A stretch of 64,000 bases of DNA from Leifsonia sp. 466MF. Its GTDB lineage: Bacteria; Actinomycetota; Actinomycetes; Actinomycetales; Microbacteriaceae. A program made the position numbers and the translations under genes. The DNA lies in assembly GCF_900100265.1 (NCBI RefSeq), contig NZ_LT629696.1, forward strand, positions 1,054,001-1,118,000, read 5' to 3'. The notes under the pieces are model-generated. The model was given only the letters and a program-made list of their open reading frames with translations. It made no database searches and had not been told where the DNA came from. The number at the start of each line of letters is the position of its first letter. Position 1 is the first letter of the stretch. Of this stretch, positions 2,579 to 14,689 are shown one piece after another.

Positions 2579-4168
2579 ATGTCCGACGGCTCTTCCTTCT
2601 ACATCACCACGCCGATCTTCTACGTGAATGATGTCCCGCACATCGGGCATGCCTACACGGAGGTCGCGGCCGACGTCCTCGCCCGCTGGCACCGCCAGGC
2701 CGGCGACGACACCTGGCTGCTCACCGGCACCGACGAGCACGGGCAGAAGATCCTGCGCACGGCGACCGCCAACGGCACCACGCCGAAGCAATGGGCCGAC
2801 AAGCTGGTCACCGAGGAGTGGCTGCCGCTGCTCGACACCGTCGACATCGCCAACGACGACTTCATCCGCACCACCGACGAGCGGCACGAGGTCAACGTCC
2901 AGAAGTTCCTGCAGAAGCTCTACGACGACGGCTACATCTACGCCGGCGAGTACGAGGCGCTGTACTGCGTGGGCTGCGAGGAGTTCAAGCCGCAGAGCGA
3001 GATCGTCGACGGCACGGGGGAGTACGAGGGTCAGAAGGTCTGCGCCATCCACTCCAAGCCGCTCGAGCTGCTGCAGGAGAAGAACTACTTCTTCCGGATG
3101 AGCCAGTTCGCCGACCGTCTGCTGTCGCTCTACGAGGAGCGCCCGGACTTCGTGCAGCCCGAGTCGGCCCGCAATGAGGTGGTCAGCTTCGTGCGTCAGG
3201 GGCTGAGCGACCTGTCCATCTCGCGATCGAGCTTCGACTGGGGCATCAAGGTGCCGTGGGACGAGTCGCACGTCGTCTACGTGTGGTTCGACGCGCTGCT
3301 CAACTACATCACCGCCGTTGGCTACGGGCAGGACGACGAGGAGTTCGCCCGCCGCTGGCCCGCCAATCACCTGGTCGGCAAAGACATCCTGCGGTTCCAC
3401 GCGGTCATCTGGCCCGCCATGCTGATGGCAGCCGGCCTCGAGGTGCCGAAGCGCGTGTTCGGTCACGGCTGGCTGCTCGTGGGCGGCGAGAAGATGTCCA
3501 AGTCCAAGCTGACGGGCATCGCGCCGACGCAGATCACCGATACGTTCGGCTCCGACGCGTTCCGCTACTACTTCATGCGCGCCATCAACTTCGGGCAGGA
3601 CGGCTCGTTCAGCTGGGAGGATCTGGCGGCCAGGTATCAGGCCGAGCTCGCCAACGGCTTCGGCAACCTGGCGTCGCGCGTGATCGCGATGGTGACGCGG
3701 TACTTCGAGGGCATCGTGCCGCCGGCGGGCGAGTACCGGGAGGTCGACCTGCACGTGCAGGAGGTCGTCCGCACCGCGGCGGCCGACGCCGATGCGGCGA
3801 TCTCGCGGCTGGCGATCCACGACGCCCTGACGGCGATCTGGCGGATCGTCGACGAGCTCAACGGCTACATCACCGAGCAGGAGCCGTGGACCCTGGCGAA
3901 AGATGAGGCCAAGCGCGAGCGCCTCGGCACCGTGCTCTACACGGCGGCCGAGGGGCTGCGGTCCCTCGCCGTGCTGCTGTCGCCGGTGATCCCGGCCGCG
4001 ACCGGAAAGCTGTGGGAGTCGCTCGGTGTCGCCGGCGAGCTGGGCGCGCTCGACGCGCAGCCGCTCCGGACGGCGGGCGACTGGGGTCAGCTGCCGGCCG
4101 GCACGGAGGTCAATGGTCTCGAGGCGCTGTTCCCGCGGATCGACGCGGAGGCGGTCGCCGCGGTATGA
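2579..4168 (+). CDS. metG: Methionyl-tRNA synthetase
   Basis: Class I aminoacyl-tRNA synthetase charging tRNA-Met in the cytoplasm. The 529-residue protein has the HIGH motif as HIGH at residues 21-24 and KMSKS at 305-309. A CVGC knuckle (Cys130, Cys133) and a CAIH pair (Cys155, His158) mark the connective-peptide metal site. The anticodon-binding helical domain follows, with no C-terminal EMAP-like extension. A TAGGAT hexamer at 2566-2571 lies 13 nt before the ATG, so the mRNA is probably leaderless. The stop overlaps the tatD start (ATGA). Confidence 0.97.
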   Translation: MSDGSSFYITTPIFYVNDVPHIGHAYTEVAADVLARWHRQAGDDTWLLTGTDEHGQKILRTATANGTTPKQWADKLVTEEWLPLLDTVDIANDDFIRTTDERHEVNVQKFLQKLYDDGYIYAGEYEALYCVGCEEFKPQSEIVDGTGEYEGQKVCAIHSKPLELLQEKNYFFRMSQFADRLLSLYEERPDFVQPESARNEVVSFVRQGLSDLSISRSSFDWGIKVPWDESHVVYVWFDALLNYITAVGYGQDDEEFARRWPANHLVGKDILRFHAVIWPAMLMAAGLEVPKRVFGHGWLLVGGEKMSKSKLTGIAPTQITDTFGSDAFRYYFMRAINFGQDGSFSWEDLAARYQAELANGFGNLASRVIAMVTRYFEGIVPPAGEYREVDLHVQEVVRTAAADADAAISRLAIHDALTAIWRIVDELNGYITEQEPWTLAKDEAKRERLGTVLYTAAEGLRSLAVLLSPVIPAATGKLWESLGVAGELGALDAQPLRTAGDWGQLPAGTEVNGLEALFPRIDAEAVAAV

Positions 4169-5094
4169 CGGACCCGTCGTTCGTCCGGCAGCGGCACGTC
4201 ACCGACGGCCGCGACCTCAGCTACCCTCCGCTGCCCGAGGCGCTGACCGTTCCCGTCTACGACAACCACACGCACCTCGAGATCGCCGACGGCGAGCAGC
4301 CGCTCGACTACCGCGAGCAGCTGGACCGCGCGTCCAGCGTGGGCGTGCGAGGGGTCGTCCAGGTGGGCAACGACGTCGAGACGTCCCGGTGGTCGGCCGA
4401 GACGGCTGCCGTCGAGCCGCGGATGCTGGCCGCCGTCGCGCTGCACCCGAACGACGCGCCGGACTACGACGAACGCGGAGAGCTGGATGACGCCCTCGGC
4501 GTGATCGCCGAGCTCGCAGGTCGGCCGCGGGTCCGCGCTGTCGGCGAGACCGGACTCGACTTCTTCCGCACGGAGGAGGGGCCCCGGCGTGACGCGCAGT
4601 TCCGGTCGTTCGAGGCCCACATCGAGATCGCGAAGCAGAACGACATCGCGCTGCAGATCCACGACCGCGACGCGCACGCGGCCGTCGTCGCCACGCTGAA
4701 GCGGGTCGGAGCCCCCGAGCGGACCGTGTTCCACTGCTTCTCGGGCGATGTCGAGCTGGCCCGCATCTGCGCCGACAACGGCTGGTACATGTCGTTCGCG
4801 GGCAACGTCACCTTCAAGAACGCGCCCAACCTCCGTGCCGCCCTCGAGGCGGCCCCGCGCCACCTGGTGATGGTGGAGACGGACGCCCCCTTCCTCACGC
4901 CGATGCCGTTCCGCGGCCGCCCGAATGCGCCGTATCTCATCCCGCACACCCTCCGGGCGATGGCCGAGGTGATGGGAACGGACGCCTCGACCCTCGCCGC
5001 GCAGATCAACTCCAACACGGAGCTCGTGTACGGCCGGTGGGACAGCGAGCCCGTCGGACCGCCGCCGACCACTCCCATCGGGATCATCGCGTGA
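4165..5094 (+). CDS. tatD: TatD family metal-dependent hydrolase
   Basis: TIM-barrel metallohydrolase of the TatD family, members of which are 3'-5' DNases. The 309-residue product has the first metal motif as DNHTHLE (residues 33-39), GETGLDFFR in the middle, [14 protein letters not shown] and the closing [10 protein letters not shown]. The ATG at 4165 overlaps the metG stop by 4 nt and the gene ends in a GTGA overlap with rsmA, so the three genes are translationally coupled. A longer open frame starting at 4012 lies inside metG and is not the start. Confidence 0.93.
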
Positions 5095-5942
5095 CCGAGC
5101 TCCGGCTGCTCGGCCCGGCGGAGATCCGCGACCTCGCTGAGCTGCTCGACGTCACCCCGACGAAGAAGCTCGGCCAGAACTTCGTCATCGACGCCAATAC
5201 CGTCCGTCGGATCGTCCGCGTCGCCGAGGTCCAGGCGGGAGACAGCGTCGTAGAGATCGGCCCCGGGCTCGGATCCCTCACCCTCGGCCTGCTCGAGGCT
5301 GGAGCGGACGTGGTGGCCGTCGAGATCGACGGTCGGCTCGCCGCGCAGCTGCCCACGACGGTGGCCCAGCTGGCGCCGGATGCCGCCCCGCACCTGACCG
5401 TGGTGCATCGGGACGCCCTCGCCATCACCGAGCTTCCGGTCGATCCCGTGCGCCTCGTCGCGAACCTTCCCTACAACGTCTCGGTTCCGGTGCTCCTGCA
5501 CTTCCTGGAGCACTTCCCGAGCCTCCGCTCCGGCGTCGTGATGGTGCAGGCCGAGGTCGGGCACCGGATCGCCGCGCAGCCCGGCTCCAAGGTCTACGGC
5601 GCCCCGAGCGTGAAGGCCGCCTGGTACGGCACCTGGCGCACCGCCGGTTCCGTCAGCCGCCAGATCTTCTGGCCGGTGCCGAACGTCGACTCGGTCCTCG
5701 TCGCCTTCGAGCGGCGTGACGACCCGCCGGGCGACGAGCAGCTCCGTCTCCGCACCTTCGCCCTCGTCGACGCCGCCTTCCAGCAGCGCCGCAAGACGCT
5801 CCGCCAGGCCCTCGCCCCGGTCTACGGCGACCCCGCGTCGGCGGAGGCGGCTCTGCTGGCGGCGGGCATCTCTCCGTCCCTCCGCGGCGAGCAGCTCGCC
5901 CTGGCCGACTTCGCACGCCTGGCGGCTGCGAGCGCGGAGTAG
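5091..5942 (+). CDS. rsmA: 16S rRNA (adenine1518-N6/adenine1519-N6)-dimethyltransferase
   Basis: Dimethylates A1518 and A1519 of 16S rRNA with SAM during 30S maturation (KsgA/RsmA). In 283 residues it shows [10 protein letters not shown], motif [13 protein letters not shown], the acidic VEID that binds the SAM ribose, and the catalytic NLPYNVS near residues 123-129. The C-terminal part has [12 protein letters not shown], typical of the family. The GTG at 5091 overlaps the tatD stop codon; an upstream GTG at 5037 would extend into tatD and is less likely. The resuscitation-promoting factor gene found between tatD and rsmA in mycobacteria is absent. Confidence 0.95.
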
Positions 5943-6008
5943 CCACAGCGCGAACAGGCGCTCAGGCCGTGCCCAGCATGGGCGTTCCGGTGTGTGTAGG
6001 TTGGAGAC

Positions 6009-6944
6009 ATGGTGGACGCGTGGGACGTCGACGGCGTGCATGTTCGCGCCCCGGGCAAGATCAACGTGTTCATGCGTGTCGGCGCCGTCATGGAGGACGG
6101 CTACCACGACGTCGCGACCGCCTATCAGGCCGTCTCCCTCTACGAGGACGTCCGCGCGTACCACGCCGATGACTTCTCGGTGAGCTTCGGCGGCAGCGTC
6201 GACACCAGCGGACTGCCGCGGGACGAATCCAATCTGGCGATCAAGGCCGCGCGCCTGCTGGCCAAGAGGACCGGTTACTCCAGTGGTGTCCGGCTGGAGA
6301 TCGACAAGCACGTTCCCATCGCCGGCGGGATGGGCGGAGGCTCGGCGGACGCCGCCGCCACGCTGGTCGCCTGCGACACGCTCTGGGGCACGGAGCTCGG
6401 GCGGGAAGAGCTCCTGACCCTCGCCTCCACGCTGGGTGCCGACGTGCCCTTCGCCCTGGTCGGCGGCACTGCCATCGGCACCGGTCGCGGCGACCGGCTG
6501 AGCCCCGCCCTGGCGACGGGCCAGTTCCACTGGGTGCTGGCGCTCCCGGACGGCGAGCTGAGCACACCACGCGTCTACAGCGAGCTCGACCGGCACCGTG
6601 AGCGCCACGCGGCCGACATCGCCCCGGCGCAGGTGTCGCCGACCGTCGACTCCGCCGTGCTGCAGGCCCTCCGCGCCGGTGAACCGGCCATGCTCGCGGA
6701 GGCTCTGACGAACGACCTGCAGGCTCCGGCCATCCACCTCGTGCCCGAGATCGCCGATGTCATCGAGCTGGGCGAGATGAACGGGGCTTTGGCCGGAATC
6801 GTGTCCGGATCCGGCCCGACCGTCGCCTTCCTGGCGGCCGATCTCGATTCGGCCATCGACCTGCAGATCGCGCTCAGCGCTTCCCGGGTGAGGGCGGTCC
6901 GCGCCACCGGGCCGGTGCACGGGGCACGCATCCTCGGCGACTGA
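6009..6944 (+). CDS. ispE: 4-diphosphocytidyl-2-C-methyl-D-erythritol kinase
   Basis: GHMP-family kinase that phosphorylates CDP-ME in the non-mevalonate (MEP) isoprenoid pathway. The 311-residue protein starts its fold with [13 protein letters not shown], has [15 protein letters not shown], the glycine-rich ATP loop [15 protein letters not shown] at about residues 100-115, and the third GHMP motif [18 protein letters not shown] hexamer at 5997-6002 lies 12 nt before the ATG, suggesting its own leaderless transcript after the 66-nt gap from rsmA. Confidence 0.94.
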
Positions 6945-10091: not shown

Positions 10092-11897
10092 TCAGCCCTC
10101 CAGCTGCTCCGAGAGTTCCAGCCAGCGGGTCTCCAGGTCGGCGATCTCGCCCTCCAGCGTCCGGAGCTCGTCGGTGAGCCGGCCGAGGCCCTGGTAGTCG
10201 CTCTGATCGTGCCGCGCCAGCTCCTCGTGCTTGGCCGCGACCTGGTCGCCCACCTTGGCGAGCCGGCGGTCGAGCGCCGACAGCTCCTTCTCGGCGGCGC
10301 GGAGTGCGGCGCCGGAAAGCGCGGGGGTGACGGGCGTCGTCGGTGTGGATGCGACGCTCGAGACAGCATCGGAGGCCGCGGCCCCGACCGCGCCCTGTGC
10401 GCGGCGCAGACGCAGGTACTCGTCCACGCCGCCGGGAAGGTGCCGCAGGCGGCCGTCGAGTACGGCGTACTGCTGGTCGGTGACGCGCTCGAGCAGGTAC
10501 CTGTCGTGGGAGACGACCAGCAGCGTCCCCGGCCACGAGTCGAGGAGGTCCTCCATCGCGGCCAGCATGTCCGTGTCGAGGTCGTTGGTCGGCTCGTCGA
10601 GGATGAGCACGTTCGGCTCGTCGAGCAGGATGAGGAGCAACTGCAACCGGCGCTTCTGGCCGCCCGACAGATCCTTCACCGGGGTGGAGAGCTGGGCGTT
10701 CGAGAAGCCGAGACGCTCCAGCAGCTGGCCCGGGGTGACCTCCTTGCCGCCGGCGAGGTAGGTGGTCCGCTTGCCCGCCACGACCGCGGAGACCCGCTCG
10801 TCCTGCACGTCGTCGAGCTCGGCGAGCTGCTGGGTGAGGGTGGCGATGCGCACCGTCTTGCCGCGCTTCACGGTTCCGGAGTCCGGCTTCACCGTTCCGG
10901 CGACAAGCCCGAGCAGTGTCGACTTGCCCGCTCCGTTGACGCCGAGGATGCCCGTGCGCTCGCCGGGGGCGATGCGCCACTCGACGTCGCGCAGCACCGT
11001 CTTCGGCGGGTACGAGACCGAGACGTCGATCAGGTCGACCACGTCCTTGCCGAGGCGGGAGGTGGCCAGCGTCGTCAGCTCGACGGTGTCGCGGGGCGGC
11101 GGTTCGTCGGCGATCAGCGTGGCGGCCGCATCCATCCGGAACTTCGGCTTCGAGGTGCGCGCCGGAGCGCCGCGACGCAGCCACGCCAGCTCCTTACGCA
11201 TGAGGTTCTGCCGCTTCGTCTCCGCGACCGCGGACATCCGGTCGCGCTCGACGCGCTGCAGGACGTAGGCGGCGTACCCGCCCTCGAAGGGCTCGACGAT
11301 GCCGTCGTGCACCTCCCACGTCGTCGTGGACACCTCGTCGAGGAACCAGCGGTCGTGCGTCACGACGACGAGCGCGCCGGACGCCGCCGACCAGCGGCCC
11401 TTCAGGTGCTGGGCGAGCCAGGCGACGCCCTCCAGGTCGAGATGGTTCGTCGGCTCGTCGAGGAAGAGGATGTCGTGGTCGTGCACCAGCAGCGCGGCCA
11501 GCGCGACGCGACGACGCTGGCCGCCGGAGAGCTCCCCGATCGTCGCCTCCCAGCGGATGTCGGAGACGAGCCCGGCCAGCACGTCGCGGACGCGCGGATC
11601 GCCCGCCCAGAGGTGCTCCTCCCGGTCGCCGACGATGGCGTGCCCGACCGTCAGCTGCGACGGCAGCTCGTCGCGCTGGTCGAGCATCCCGACCGTCACC
11701 CCGCGGCGGCGGGTCACCCGGCCCGAGTCCGGCTCGATGCGCCCGGCGAGCAGCTGCAGCAGCGTGGACTTGCCGTCGCCGTTGCGGCCGACGACGCCGA
11801 CGCGGTCGCCCTCGGAGAGCCCCAGCGTGACCGAGTCGAAGACGGTGCGCGTCGGGTACTCCAGGTGAAGGGATTCCGCGCCGAGAAGGTGAGCCAT
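10092..11897 (-). CDS. ABC-F family ATPase (Uup/EttA-like)
   Basis: Soluble tandem ATPase without membrane segments, of the ABC-F class that acts on ribosomes. In 601 residues it has two ABC cassettes: Walker A GRNGDGKST (37-45) with LSGGQRRR and ILFLDEPTNHLD, and a second GVNGAGKST with LSGGQKRR and LILDEPTNDLD. An arginine/lysine-rich linker lies between. The last ~75 residues form a charged coiled coil as in Uup. Which ABC-F subfamily it belongs to, including antibiotic-resistance types, is not decided by these motifs. Its promoter region faces the Abi cassette. Confidence 0.92.
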   Translation of the reverse strand: MAHLLGAESLHLEYPTRTVFDSVTLGLSEGDRVGVVGRNGDGKSTLLQLLAGRIEPDSGRVTRRRGVTVGMLDQRDELPSQLTVGHAIVGDREEHLWAGDPRVRDVLAGLVSDIRWEATIGELSGGQRRRVALAALLVHDHDILFLDEPTNHLDLEGVAWLAQHLKGRWSAASGALVVVTHDRWFLDEVSTTTWEVHDGIVEPFEGGYAAYVLQRVERDRMSAVAETKRQNLMRKELAWLRRGAPARTSKPKFRMDAAATLIADEPPPRDTVELTTLATSRLGKDVVDLIDVSVSYPPKTVLRDVEWRIAPGERTGILGVNGAGKSTLLGLVAGTVKPDSGTVKRGKTVRIATLTQQLAELDDVQDERVSAVVAGKRTTYLAGGKEVTPGQLLERLGFSNAQLSTPVKDLSGGQKRRLQLLLILLDEPNVLILDEPTNDLDTDMLAAMEDLLDSWPGTLLVVSHDRYLLERVTDQQYAVLDGRLRHLPGGVDEYLRLRRAQGAVGAAASDAVSSVASTPTTPVTPALSGAALRAAEKELSALDRRLAKVGDQVAAKHEELARHDQSDYQGLGRLTDELRTLEGEIADLETRWLELSEQLEG

Positions 11898-11922
11898 GAG
11901 GGTCTCCAGCCTACCCGGCGGG

Positions 11923-11940
11923 CGGAGCTAGACTCCCGCC
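11923..11940. repeat. Left 18-bp direct repeat of the Abi cassette
   Basis: CGGAGCTAGACTCCCGCC, identical to 12953-12970. It lies 25 bp from the ABC-F start codon. The copy contains a TAGACT hexamer at 11929-11934, the same -10-like element that precedes the acyl-CoA dehydrogenase in the right copy. Confidence 0.95.
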
Positions 11941-12027
11941 CCGTCGGTGGCACCTGTTACAGTTTCAGTATCAGCGCCCCCCCAAGGCTCGAGCCGTCCG
12001 GCTTCCTCAAATGCGGGGGGTCTTTTT
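11941..12027 (+). ncRNA. Candidate abiF-type structured RNA upstream of the Abi_2 gene
   Basis: A run of seven C at 11977-11983 can pair with six G at 12015-12020. Between them are a GGC-TCGA-GCC hairpin (11986-11995) and an alternative GCCG-TC-CGGC hairpin (11993-12002) that cannot both form. The closing stem is followed by a T-run at 12023-12027, as at an intrinsic terminator. A structured RNA (the abiF motif) is known upstream of Abi_2 family genes, and this element has the right place and ending. The 5' end near 11941 is inferred from TAGACT at 11929-11934. Exact ends and the role as antitoxin are inference. Confidence 0.6.
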
Positions 12028-12071
12028 ATGCCAGATGCTGTTTGCCTTGACATTCTCATAACATCAATTCT

Positions 12072-12932
12072 GTGCACAAGCCGTTCCTCTCCCTCCATGA
12101 GCAGGTTGAGCTCCTCGATCAGCGTGGACTGGATGTGGGTGACGCTCAGCAAGCCGCACACGCGCTTCATCGCCTCAATTACTACCGCGTGAGCGGATAT
12201 GGGCGAGAGTTCCAGGTCGCGCCCTCGCGGGGAGACGACGACTACGACGCCGGAGCGTCGCTTGAGCGCATTCTTGGATTGATGGACCGCGATGCCCGCC
12301 TCCGGCTCTTGCTGACGGAAGCGCTGATAGAAATCGAAATCGGAGTCCGTTCCCGCTTCGCGCACGAGGCGGGACGCGTGCACGGTTCGCACGCGTTCTA
12401 TCTCGAGTCGGCCGCCTATCTGGACAGCACTCCAGACCTGGGAAGCCACATCGCAAAGATCAGACGAGAACTGCTTCGGCCTCAACTCCGCACCGTCGCA
12501 CGTTACCGCTCGGGGGATGACCTTTCGCGGGTTCCCATCTGGGTCGCTATCGAGGTGGTCACTTTCGGCGCGCTCGCCAAGATGGTGTGGTATCTGGATC
12601 CACCGCTCGCCGCGCAGCGCACAGCAGACGCCGCTGGTCTGCAGCGTACGGGGTTCGGGTCCAGCATCCACAGCTTTGCTGTCCTGCGGAACGTGTGTGC
12701 ACATCATGGGCAGTTGTGGCATCGCTCCTTCGACGTCATGTTCGCGACGCTTCCGAAAGAGAAGAAGCGAGAACCTCGCCACGAACCGTCGAGCGTCTAT
12801 AGCGGCATCGTCGTCGCGAAGCGTTTCCTCAAGGGCATGAACCGGCTGCCGGATTGGTCGGAGCGGGTGTCTGCGCTTCTCGACGAAGACGCCGAGTTCC
12901 GCGCCGGGATACTGCAGCCAGCGCCCCGCTGA
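12072..12932 (+). CDS. Abi_2 (AbiF/AbiD-like) abortive infection protein with HEPN motif
   Basis: A 286-residue protein of the Abi_2 family (PF07751). It has the family's N-terminal LNYYRVSGYG (residues 35-44), IEVVTFGALAKMVW in the middle and RNVCAHHGQLWHR at 206-218. The last contains R-X4-H (Arg206, His211), the HEPN ribonuclease signature. A second R-X4-H (Arg93, His98) lies in the first half. Family members arrest growth on phage infection, probably by RNA cleavage. The GTG start has no clear Shine-Dalgarno. Codon use is more AT-rich than in the neighbours (for example ATA and GAA in the stretch around residue 85), which points to transfer. It lies alone between 18-bp direct repeats, preceded by a structured RNA. 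Confidence 0.88.
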   Translation: MHKPFLSLHEQVELLDQRGLDVGDAQQAAHALHRLNYYRVSGYGREFQVAPSRGDDDYDAGASLERILGLMDRDARLRLLLTEALIEIEIGVRSRFAHEAGRVHGSHAFYLESAAYLDSTPDLGSHIAKIRRELLRPQLRTVARYRSGDDLSRVPIWVAIEVVTFGALAKMVWYLDPPLAAQRTADAAGLQRTGFGSSIHSFAVLRNVCAHHGQLWHRSFDVMFATLPKEKKREPRHEPSSVYSGIVVAKRFLKGMNRLPDWSERVSALLDEDAEFRAGILQPAPR

Positions 12933-12952
12933 GGCCTTCTTCACGCGGGCAC

Positions 12953-12970
12953 CGGAGCTAGACTCCCGCC
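12953..12970. repeat. Right 18-bp direct repeat of the Abi cassette, containing a promoter hexamer
   Basis: CGGAGCTAGACTCCCGCC, identical to 11923-11940. The TAGACT at 12959-12964 lies 12 nt before the ATG of the acyl-CoA dehydrogenase, so this copy probably is that gene's native leaderless promoter. The unit between equivalent repeat ends is 1,030 bp. Confidence 0.95.
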
Positions 12971-14602
12971 ATGGTCACCCACACCGTCGTGAACCAGGCG
13001 CCCCCGCGCGTCGACGTGGACGAGTTCGCGGCGAACCTGCCGCTCCGGGAAGGCGTGGAGCGCTACGACGCCGCCTGGGCCATCCCCTCGCTCGGCGACA
13101 TCGGCCGCCTGGTCGGCTCGGAGGCGTTCCAGCGGGATGCGGAGCTCGCCAACCGGCACGAGCCCGAGCTGCACGCCTTCGACCGCTGGGGGAACCGGAT
13201 CGACGAGGTCGAGTACGACGACGGCTACCACCGGGTCATCGCCGCTGCGGTCGCGGCCGGTGCCCACACGTCCGCGTGGGCGGACCCGCGTCCGGGAGCG
13301 AACGTCGCCCGTGCCGCGGCTTTCCTGCAGTTCGCGCAGGTCGAGCCGGGCCACGCCTGCCCGGTATCGATGACGCACGCCGCCGTCCCCGCGCTCGCCG
13401 TCTCCGAGAGCCTCTCCGCCGAGTGGATGCCGCGGCTGCTCAGCCGCGACTACGACGGCCGGTTGCTCCCCGGCAAGACCTCCGCGCTGTTCGGGATGGC
13501 CATGACCGAGAAGCAGGGCGGATCGGATGTGCGGGCCAACACGACCCGCGCGCTCGCAGACGGCGACGGACGCTGGCTGCTCACGGGCCACAAGTGGTTC
13601 TGCTCCGCGCCCATGTCGGACGCGTTCCTCGTGCTCGCGCAGACCGCGAACGGGCTCTCCTGCTTCCTCGTGCCACGCGTGCTGGACGATGGCGCGCGCA
13701 ACGTGTTCCTCATCCAACGGCTGAAGGACAAGCTCGGCAACCGTTCGAACGCGTCGTCCGAGGTCGAGTTCGACGAGACGGTCGGGTACCTGCTGGGGGA
13801 GGAGGGCCGGGGCGTGCGCACCATTCTCGAGATGGTGAATCGCACGCGTCTCGACTGCGTCTACGGCAGCGCGGCGGGGATGCGGCAGGCGGTCGCCGAG
13901 GCGGCCTGGCACGTGCGGCACCGCGCGGCGTTCGGGCGGCGGTTGATCGACCAGCCGGCGATGACGGCGGTGCTCGCCGACCTCGCGCTGGAGTCGGAAG
14001 CGGCGACCGCCGTGTCCCTCCGGTTGGCGCGCGCTCACGATGCGGATGCGCGGGAGGGGGATGTGGCGCTCCGCCGGCTCGCGACCGCCGTCACCAAATA
14101 CTGGGTGTGCAAGCGCGGTCCGGGACACGCGTACGAGGCGCTCGAATGCCTCGGCGGCAACGGGTACACGGAGGCGTTCCCGCTGGCCCGGCGGTATCGG
14201 GAGCAGCCGGTGATGGCGATCTGGGAGGGCTCGGGCAACGTGATCGCCCTGGATGTGCTGCGCGCGCTGCGTCGGGAGCCGGCGGCGGCGGAGGCGTTCG
14301 ACGCCGAGCTCGCCGCCGCTCGGGGTGTGTACCGGACCTTCGACGGACACCATGACCGCCTGCGGGCGCGCCTGGCGGCGGCAGCGGCGTCCGCCACCGA
14401 CGACCCCGCCGCGGCCGAGGCGGCGGTGCGCCCGCTCGTCGCCGCACTGGCCGTCGCGCTGCAGGCCTCCCTGCTCATCCGCACAGCACCCGCCGCCGTC
14501 GCCGACGCCTTCGTCGCCGCCCGGCTCGGCCCCGAGCGCGGAGCCCTCTACGGCGAGCTCCCCTCCGGCCTCGACCTCGCCGCCCTCACCGCCCGCGCCT
14601 GA
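12971..14602 (+). CDS. AidB-like acyl-CoA dehydrogenase
   Basis: FAD-dependent acyl-CoA dehydrogenase superfamily protein of the AidB branch. The 543-residue length and the motifs MAMTEKQGGSDVRANTT (around residue 177), GHKWFCSAPMSDAFLVLAQ and ECLGGNGYTE (about 392-401) match AidB, an adaptive-response flavoprotein with weak isovaleryl-CoA dehydrogenase activity that binds DNA in E. coli. The C-terminal part is Ala-rich and helical. No alkylation-repair genes are nearby, so a role in DNA protection is not supported by context. TAGACT 12 nt upstream suggests a leaderless mRNA. Confidence 0.88.
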   Translation: MVTHTVVNQAPPRVDVDEFAANLPLREGVERYDAAWAIPSLGDIGRLVGSEAFQRDAELANRHEPELHAFDRWGNRIDEVEYDDGYHRVIAAAVAAGAHTSAWADPRPGANVARAAAFLQFAQVEPGHACPVSMTHAAVPALAVSESLSAEWMPRLLSRDYDGRLLPGKTSALFGMAMTEKQGGSDVRANTTRALADGDGRWLLTGHKWFCSAPMSDAFLVLAQTANGLSCFLVPRVLDDGARNVFLIQRLKDKLGNRSNASSEVEFDETVGYLLGEEGRGVRTILEMVNRTRLDCVYGSAAGMRQAVAEAAWHVRHRAAFGRRLIDQPAMTAVLADLALESEAATAVSLRLARAHDADAREGDVALRRLATAVTKYWVCKRGPGHAYEALECLGGNGYTEAFPLARRYREQPVMAIWEGSGNVIALDVLRALRREPAAAEAFDAELAAARGVYRTFDGHHDRLRARLAAAAASATDDPAAAEAAVRPLVAALAVALQASLLIRTAPAAVADAFVAARLGPERGALYGELPSGLDLAALTARA

Positions 14603-14623: not shown

Positions 14624-14689
14624 CCGTCGAGTACACGATTCCTTACCGCGACACGCCGCCGCGGCGTGCAGAAATCGTGTACTCGACGG
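14624..14689. repeat. Long intergenic palindrome, family A
   Basis: A perfect 17-bp inverted repeat, arms 14624-14640 and 14673-14689, with a 32-bp GC-rich centre holding a further small dyad. The outer arm CCGTCGAGTACAC recurs in the palindrome at 28209-28274. No T-run follows. It could be a terminator-like hairpin after the acyl-CoA dehydrogenase gene or a REP-like mobile repeat. Confidence 0.9.

What the first reader, a model, noticed from the sequence alone, without database searches (positions are those of the whole stretch)
11923..12970. Defence gene is a clean 1,030-bp insertion bounded by 18-bp perfect direct repeats
CGGAGCTAGACTCCCGCC is at 11923-11940 and 12953-12970. Removing one unit would leave a 43-bp divergent space between the ABC-F and acyl-CoA dehydrogenase genes. 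There is no transposase, integrase or tRNA site. 18 bp is long for a common target duplication, so recombination between short repeats, or an unknown mobilising route for single-gene defence cassettes, is possible. The cassette's codon use is also more AT-rich than its surroundings.
Basis: seen in the sequence. Interest (0 to 1): 0.85.

Follow-up and report, generated by a model that had tools for sequence, protein, structure and literature searches.

The report
Defence gene inserted with duplicated target
A one-gene defence unit (an RNase toxin with its small control RNA) has inserted cleanly between two housekeeping genes of a Leifsonia bacterium, duplicating the short stretch it landed in, and similar insertions, with no moving enzyme found in or beside the unit, are seen around some relatives of this gene elsewhere.

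Summary
The 18-bp repeat is exact, has no closer genomic relative than 3 mismatches, and brackets a 1,030-bp unit. Sister species G013 has the predicted empty site: one copy, 43-bp spacer. G009 and G005 have empty sites of the same length. The unit is an abiF RNA plus an Abi_2/AbiF HEPN gene, by analogy a type III toxin-antitoxin-like defence module. The 18 bp are what survives of a duplication of (by inference) the whole ABC-F/acyl-CoA-dehydrogenase spacer; 29 bp are still visible in G014 and, from another part, in G025. Occupied and empty species are intermixed on an rpoB+gyrA tree. Of 80 Abi_2 loci tested in the family, 10 (8 sites) have long flanking direct repeats, 70 do not; in 1,500 control placements 9 did, 7 of them repeats of the ychF 3' region. 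A second AbiF cassette in the genus (22-bp perfect repeat) has two empty relatives with exactly one copy. Repeats run from 18 to 175 bp, several of them gene 3' ends. The unit holds one gene, and no tyrosine integrase lies within 100 kb. The closest known phenomenon is 'insertion with long target duplication' of restriction-modification genes. How the unit moves is not settled.

The parts
11898..11940 (.). Left copy of the ABC-F/acyl-CoA-dehydrogenase spacer (43 bp), identical to the empty site of G013
11923..11940 (+). Left copy of the 18-bp direct repeat; contains TAGACT, a -10-like hexamer
   Evidence: promoter reading is inference
11958..11963 (+). TACAGT, a -10-like hexamer before the abiF RNA (TAGAGT at the matching place in G025)
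   Evidence: inference from sequence
11978..12021 (+). abiF RNA (Rfam RF03085, 23.6 bits, E 0.19, below the curators' cut-off of 37); structure supported by covariation over 9 loci; followed by a T run at 12023-12027
12072..12932 (+). Abi_2/AbiF protein, 286 aa, HEPN motif RNVCAHH; matches the solved Abi family protein 8vz6
12930..12970 (.). Right, partly decayed copy of the spacer (41 nt), beginning at the abi stop codon TGA
   Evidence: extent beyond the 18 bp is inferred from G014 and G025
12953..12970 (+). Right copy of the 18-bp direct repeat, immediately before the ATG of the acyl-CoA dehydrogenase gene
10092..11897 (-). ABC-F ATPase gene (left neighbour)
12971..14602 (+). AidB-like acyl-CoA dehydrogenase gene (right neighbour)

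Best explanation
The unit is a compact AbiF defence module: a promoter, an abiF RNA followed by a T run, and an Abi_2 HEPN gene. It entered the divergent spacer between an ABC-F gene and an acyl-CoA dehydrogenase gene and duplicated that spacer, so that each neighbour could keep its own promoter. This is an 'insertion with long target duplication'. Shown here: empty sites with one copy, more of the spacer duplicated in two relatives, patchy presence on the species tree, the same architecture at some other Abi_2 loci, and a unit with one gene and no tyrosine integrase near it. Inferred: the module arrived on DNA joined in by host recombination or end-joining, not by a transposase of its own, because duplication lengths run from 18 to 175 bp. 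Also inferred: precise loss (as in G013) is recombination between the two copies, and repeated gain at the same spot comes from exchange between Leifsonia lineages.
For: The empty site in sister G013 equals the prediction; G009 and G005 have empty sites of the same length. The rpoB+gyrA tree pairs G000 with G013, G025 with G005 and G015 with G009 (support 1.000, 0.999, 0.990), i.e. occupied or relic with empty. Repeats in G014 and G025 reveal the longer duplication. A second AbiF cassette in the genus (G020, 1,192 bp) has a 22-bp perfect repeat, and G001 and G005 have that place with exactly one copy. 10 of 80 Abi_2 loci in the family score 36 or more for a flanking direct repeat; the 99.9th percentile of 3,000 mismatched pairs is 33. 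Same-geometry control on other DNA: 9 of 1,500, of which 7 are repeats of the ychF 3' region. Outside the family 2 of 16 loci have long repeats, 175 bp and 99 bp. In 9 genomes no PF00589 integrase lies within 100 kb of the junction on the same contig. None of the 14 inverted repeats of 12 nt or more found around the unit joins its two ends.
Against: 70 of 80 Abi_2 loci in the family and 14 of 16 outside show no such repeat in the windows tested; wider windows add two loci at 45-47, not above that test's own 99.9th percentile of 47. Decay or another mode of entry cannot be told apart. Only two sites were checked with empty relatives. The ten are mixed: G274 carries an IS-end remnant and lies in a tandem array, G225's gene has an in-frame stop, G148's repeat may be a dispersed element. 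Site fidelity and positions at gene 3' ends and a tRNA also fit site-specific recombination. Serine recombinases and transposases were not searched with models around the unit. No movement was observed.
Confidence: 0.5

Rival explanations
1. Att-type integration: the cassette is a minimal integrative element flanked by attL and attR, moved by a recombinase supplied in trans. The repeat is the crossover identity block.
For: Other AbiF cassettes sit at typical integrase targets: tRNA-Phe in G312, the 3' end of ychF in G015 and G020, the 3' end of a GNAT gene in G020. The ychF site can hold tandem units of different cargo separated by the same repeat: counting ychF itself, four copies in G002 and three in G026. 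All 9 genomes checked have integrase-family genes elsewhere.
Against: The unit has no recombinase gene and no PF00589 integrase within 100 kb. Repeat lengths vary from 18 to 175 bp. The site studied here is a divergent spacer, not a gene end.
Confidence: 0.25
2. One old insertion in the ancestor of the clade, inherited vertically, then lost several times by precise deletion between the repeats. No repeated gain.
For: Three losses (G013, G005, G009) plus decay in G015 would do, though one node of that clade has support of only 0.594. Among matches at E up to 1e-40 in 398 sampled family genomes only G000 and G025 exceed 56% identity, both at this site (G014 comes). G013 is exactly the deletion product expected from G000. 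Near the cassette the flanks of G000 and G014 are about as similar as the cassette itself.
Against: The four-fold-site distance of abi relative to the flanks is 0.30-0.72 for G000-G014 but 1.08-2.87 for G000-G025 (95% bootstrap); in 0 of 2,000 bootstraps was the first as high as the second, so one steady clock does not fit. The two copies in G025 share variants absent from G000 and G014 and partly absent from its sister G005.
Confidence: 0.2
3. A conventional transposon or IS-borne unit whose transposase was lost.
For: One AbiF cassette in the family (G274) has at its left end an 87-bp sequence that elsewhere lies beside an rve-domain (transposase-type) gene.
Against: No inverted repeat of 12 nt or more joins the ends of the unit studied, and it has no transposase frame; duplications are longer than usual for IS elements and not of fixed length.
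Confidence: 0.04
4. The repeat is a chance or promoter-motif coincidence and the gene is an old resident.
For: The repeat contains TAGACT six bases before the ATG, like a leaderless promoter (inference).
Against: The 18-mer occurs nowhere else in the genome with fewer than 3 mismatches; three relatives have the empty site.
Confidence: 0.01

Closest known systems
Insertion with long target duplication (restriction-modification genes, Nobusato et al. 2000, Gene 259:99; not read, known from citing passages in PMC3031569 and PMC4978471)
   Same: A defence or addiction module appears between long direct repeats of the target, of variable length; here with relatives that have one copy
   Different: Cargo is an RNA-toxin module, not a restriction-modification system; host is an actinobacterium; in G025 and in the second cassette (G020) the abi stop codon lies inside the repeat
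AbiF/AbiD (Abi_2) with abiF RNA, e.g. AbiF-Cd with RCd22 in Clostridioides difficile (PMC12373285: abstract and sections 6-7 read)
   Same: Abi_2 domain and a structured RNA with abiF motif and terminator-like end just upstream of the gene
   Different: One abiF motif here, two in RCd22; a chromosomal single-gene insertion, not in a prophage lysis module. Read-through from RNA to gene was not tested here
p-dif modules moved by XerC/XerD in trans (recalled, no call)
   Same: Small cargo units between short recombination sites, no recombinase of their own
   Different: Repeats here do not look like dif (judged by eye) and differ from site to site
Integron gene cassettes (recalled, no call)
   Same: Arrays of small units separated by a repeat, as at the ychF site
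   Different: The repeat is the 3' end of a host gene, not attC; an integron integrase was not looked for by its own model

Membership tests
AbiF/AbiD (Abi_2) system | Abi_2 Pfam domain over the curated cut-off | tested here: met
   PF07751 118.6 bits, cut-off 25.6; PADLOC AbiD 157.8 bits; PDB 8vz6 Abi family protein E 1.1e-20
AbiF/AbiD (Abi_2) system | HEPN motif RxxxxH | tested here: met
   RNVCAHH
AbiF/AbiD (Abi_2) system | abiF RNA upstream, over the Rfam cut-off | tested here: not met
   RF03085 at 23.6 bits, cut-off 37, E 0.19
AbiF/AbiD (Abi_2) system | Conserved structured RNA upstream with covariation | tested here: met
   9 loci picked by a short motif, or by Rfam for L060: 97.6% of cells pair, 3 of 10 pairs change on both sides, 0 of 500 shuffles reach the covariation score
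AbiF/AbiD (Abi_2) system | Toxic RNase held by the RNA; protection against phages | not testable with these tools
   needs experiment
Insertion with long target duplication | Relative with an empty site and one repeat copy | tested here: met
   G013, G009, G005
Insertion with long target duplication | Long duplication of variable length at different sites | tested here: met
   18 to 175 bp; empty relatives were checked at two sites only
Insertion with long target duplication | No transposase or integrase in the unit | tested here: met
   one gene of note in the unit (by eye); no PF00589 within 100 kb
Tyrosine-recombinase integrative element | Integrase gene in the element | tested here: not met
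Tyrosine-recombinase integrative element | Direct repeats at both ends (attL, attR) | tested here: met
Tyrosine-recombinase integrative element | Fixed crossover within the repeat | not testable with these tools
   needs excision products
IS or transposon | Terminal inverted repeats | tested here: not met
   none of 12 nt or more joins the two ends; shorter ones not tested

The most novel reading that the evidence does not exclude
Small defence cassettes without a recombinase carry a captured copy of their landing site, and that copy acts as an address. Excised circles or transferred fragments re-enter the same chromosomal docking site in other strains through it. The ABC-F/acyl-CoA-dehydrogenase spacer and the 3' end of ychF would be two such docking sites in Leifsonia, the latter holding AbiF, a PtuA-like two-gene system and other small genes, sometimes in arrays.
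Probability: 0.25. Interest if true: 0.85.

Novelty: new variant of a known kind. Interest (0 to 1): 0.62.

Why it matters
How solitary defence genes move between genomes without transposons, phages or plasmids is, to my knowledge, poorly understood. Here is a case with the empty site, the duplicated target, a second confirmed case in the same genus and a countable set of further candidates, so the question becomes testable by PCR and by surveys. It also links AbiF, which PMC12737573 (passages read) presents as an evolutionary precursor of Cas13, to the insertion mode described for restriction-modification genes.

Tried and rejected
Considered and rejected: chance repeat; conventional transposon; local tyrosine integrase. 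A sharp step of divergence at the cassette's edges between G000 and G014, which would show import of the cassette alone, was looked for and not found: the first 60 codons of both flanks differ at 7 of 42 and 9 of 37 four-fold sites, much like the cassette at 29 of 154. The scan of named genome contigs with the AbiF protein found no relative; the junction pattern found three Leifsonia contigs. Rfam at E up to 5 listed no abiF RNA in eight junction loci, the G014 and G025 cassettes among them, and among 18 other Abi loci only L060, so the other RNAs were found by a sequence pattern and supported by covariation. No paper describing AbiF inserts with long target duplications appeared in the listings (openly licensed PMC papers only). 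An earlier reading that several cargo frames at the ychF site end in the repeat was cut back: two of them overlap better frames or are ychF fragments; only the AAA_33 protein of G002 stands. The 80 loci are all 71 rows plus nine further loci; left out were three partial matches (L049, L054, L055). Control loci are mostly housekeeping and ychF-region DNA and were drawn with overlap.

Full report
WHAT IS THERE. The 18-bp repeat lies at 11923-11940 and 12953-12970, exact in both places. Within 3 mismatches the window holds no third copy, and the genome (one contig, 4,141,347 bp) five others, all with 3 mismatches. Between the copies lie an abiF RNA (11978-12021) and an Abi_2 gene (12072-12932) with the HEPN motif RNVCAHH. 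The Rfam score of the RNA is below the curators' cut-off (23.6 against 37, E 0.19), but the aligned RNAs of nine loci, picked by a short motif or by Rfam, keep 97.6% of pairs, with changes on both sides at three of ten pairs and 0 of 500 shuffles reaching the covariation score. The protein matches a solved Abi family protein, 8vz6, at E 1.1e-20, which PMC12737573 calls PbAbiF-ncRNA (passages read). In Clostridioides difficile an AbiF protein is neutralised by such an RNA (PMC12373285, abstract and sections 6 and 7 read). By analogy this unit is a type III toxin-antitoxin-like defence module. That function was not tested.

THE EMPTY SITE. The 1.7-kb junction was searched in 99 genomes, the own one included; 28 of them are of the genus. 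I determined the junction in nine genus genomes, G000 included; the other 19 were not resolved. Occupied: G000, G014 (abi frameshifted), G025. Empty: G013, G009, G005, each with 43 bp between start codons. Other: G015 (an abiF RNA remnant plus other DNA), G020 (a longer spacer of unclear content), G001 (a reading frame that looks like a GNAT gene, by eye). G013, the sister of G000, has exactly the sequence that deletion between the two 18-bp copies would leave.

THE DUPLICATION IS THE SPACER. In G014 the repeat is 29 bp with 3 mismatches; in G025 it is 29 bp with two 1-bp gaps and one mismatch, and covers the other half of the spacer. From the abi stop codon to the acyl-CoA dehydrogenase start there are 41, 43 and 43 nt in G000, G014 and G025 (counted), against 44 nt in the empty spacer counted from the same TGAG. 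I infer that the whole spacer was duplicated and that each copy keeps the promoter needed by its neighbour while the rest decays. The abi stop codon then lies where the right copy begins; in G025 and in the second cassette (G020) it lies inside the aligned repeat.

HISTORY. The rpoB+gyrA tree groups G000 with G013, then G014; G025 with G005; G015 with G009; the node joining the first two groups has support of only 0.594. So each occupied or relic genome has an empty neighbour, except G014, which branches just outside G000 and G013. The four-fold-site distance of abi relative to the flanking genes is 0.30-0.72 for G000-G014 and 1.08-2.87 for G000-G025; in 0 of 2,000 bootstraps was the first as high as the second. 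This speaks against a single clock-like vertical history but does not fix the number of gains. The flanks next to the cassette show no sharp step between G000 and G014, so transfer of the cassette alone between them is not shown, and an insertion older than their split, with loss in G013, remains open.

NOT ONLY HERE. A second AbiF cassette in the genus, in G020, follows a GNAT-like gene: 22-bp perfect repeat, 1,192-bp unit. G001 and G005 have the same place with exactly one copy. In a test of 80 Abi_2 loci of the family, 10 loci at 8 sites scored 36 or more for a direct repeat between the upstream 420 bp and the downstream 300 bp; the 99.9th percentile of 3,000 mismatched pairs was 33, and their maximum of 54 I ascribe to cross-pairs of G000 and G014. 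The other 70 showed none. Wider windows add two at 45-47, not above the wider test's 99.9th percentile of 47; one of them, in G020, lies at the ychF site. In 1,500 same-geometry placements on other DNA, 9 reached 36, 7 of them repeats of the ychF 3' region. Among 16 loci outside the family two have long repeats: 175 bp at 97.1% in G601, covering the 3' end of a reading frame, and 99 bp at 86.9% in G541, directly after a frame that reads as ychF. The ten are not uniform: G312's repeat lies in the anticodon arm of a tRNA-Phe, G441's reads as a gene 3' end (by eye), and G274 is a tandem array with an IS-end remnant.

THE ychF SITE. In ten of twelve Leifsonia stretches scanned (up to 7 mismatches in 30) one or more further copies of the ychF 3' end lie downstream with small cargo between: AbiF in G015 and G020, a PtuA/PDC-M01-like ATPase with an HNH protein in G025, a DUF4304 protein in G026 and others, several without a family. 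One cargo protein, an AAA_33 protein in G002, ends inside the repeat.

MECHANISM. [quoted passage not shown] 2000, not read; citing passages in PMC3031569, and PMC4978471). The spread of lengths argues against a transposase; tRNA and gene-end targets and arrays keep a recombinase acting in trans open. Integrase-family genes occur in all nine genomes tested; the nearest to the junction on the same contig is 110 kb away (G025), and in G000 616 kb. Other recombinase families were not searched.

Noticed in passing
L246, L247, L248, L252, L259, L262 (Leifsonia, downstream of ychF): Small cargo units, some in tandem, separated by copies of the ychF 3' end; cargo includes AbiF and a PtuA/PDC-M01-like pair, and one AAA_33 protein (L262) ends inside the repeat.
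   Followed up: partly
L275 (G541, another family), 1157-1255 and 2461-2555 on the reverse complement: An AbiF gene directly after a frame that reads as ychF, between 99-bp repeats, so the ychF 3' end may serve as a landing site beyond the family.
   Followed up: partly
L190 (G312), tRNA-Phe 1262-1335: AbiF cassette next to a tRNA-Phe with a displaced copy of the anticodon arm at its far end.
   Followed up: partly
L255 (G274) 3064-3150 and beyond: An 87-bp sequence, also at the left end of the G274 AbiF cassette and beside an rve-domain gene in L256, is followed in L255 by what reads like the tail of an AbiF gene.
   Followed up: partly
window 5037-6944: Between G000 and G013 the synonymous distance is 0.34-0.38 here against about 0.14-0.21 around, suggesting an imported stretch in one of them.
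   Followed up: no
window about 14624-14689: A long palindrome (CCGTCGAGTACACGATT ... AATCGTGTACTCGACGG) after the acyl-CoA dehydrogenase gene, perhaps a repeated extragenic element.
   Followed up: no
L009 (G014): The abi gene is frameshifted by one base in a run of C, so the cassette may be decaying there.
   Followed up: partly
L060 2521-2612: A TPP riboswitch lies just downstream of an AbiF gene that has a strong abiF RNA match (47.1 bits).
   Followed up: no
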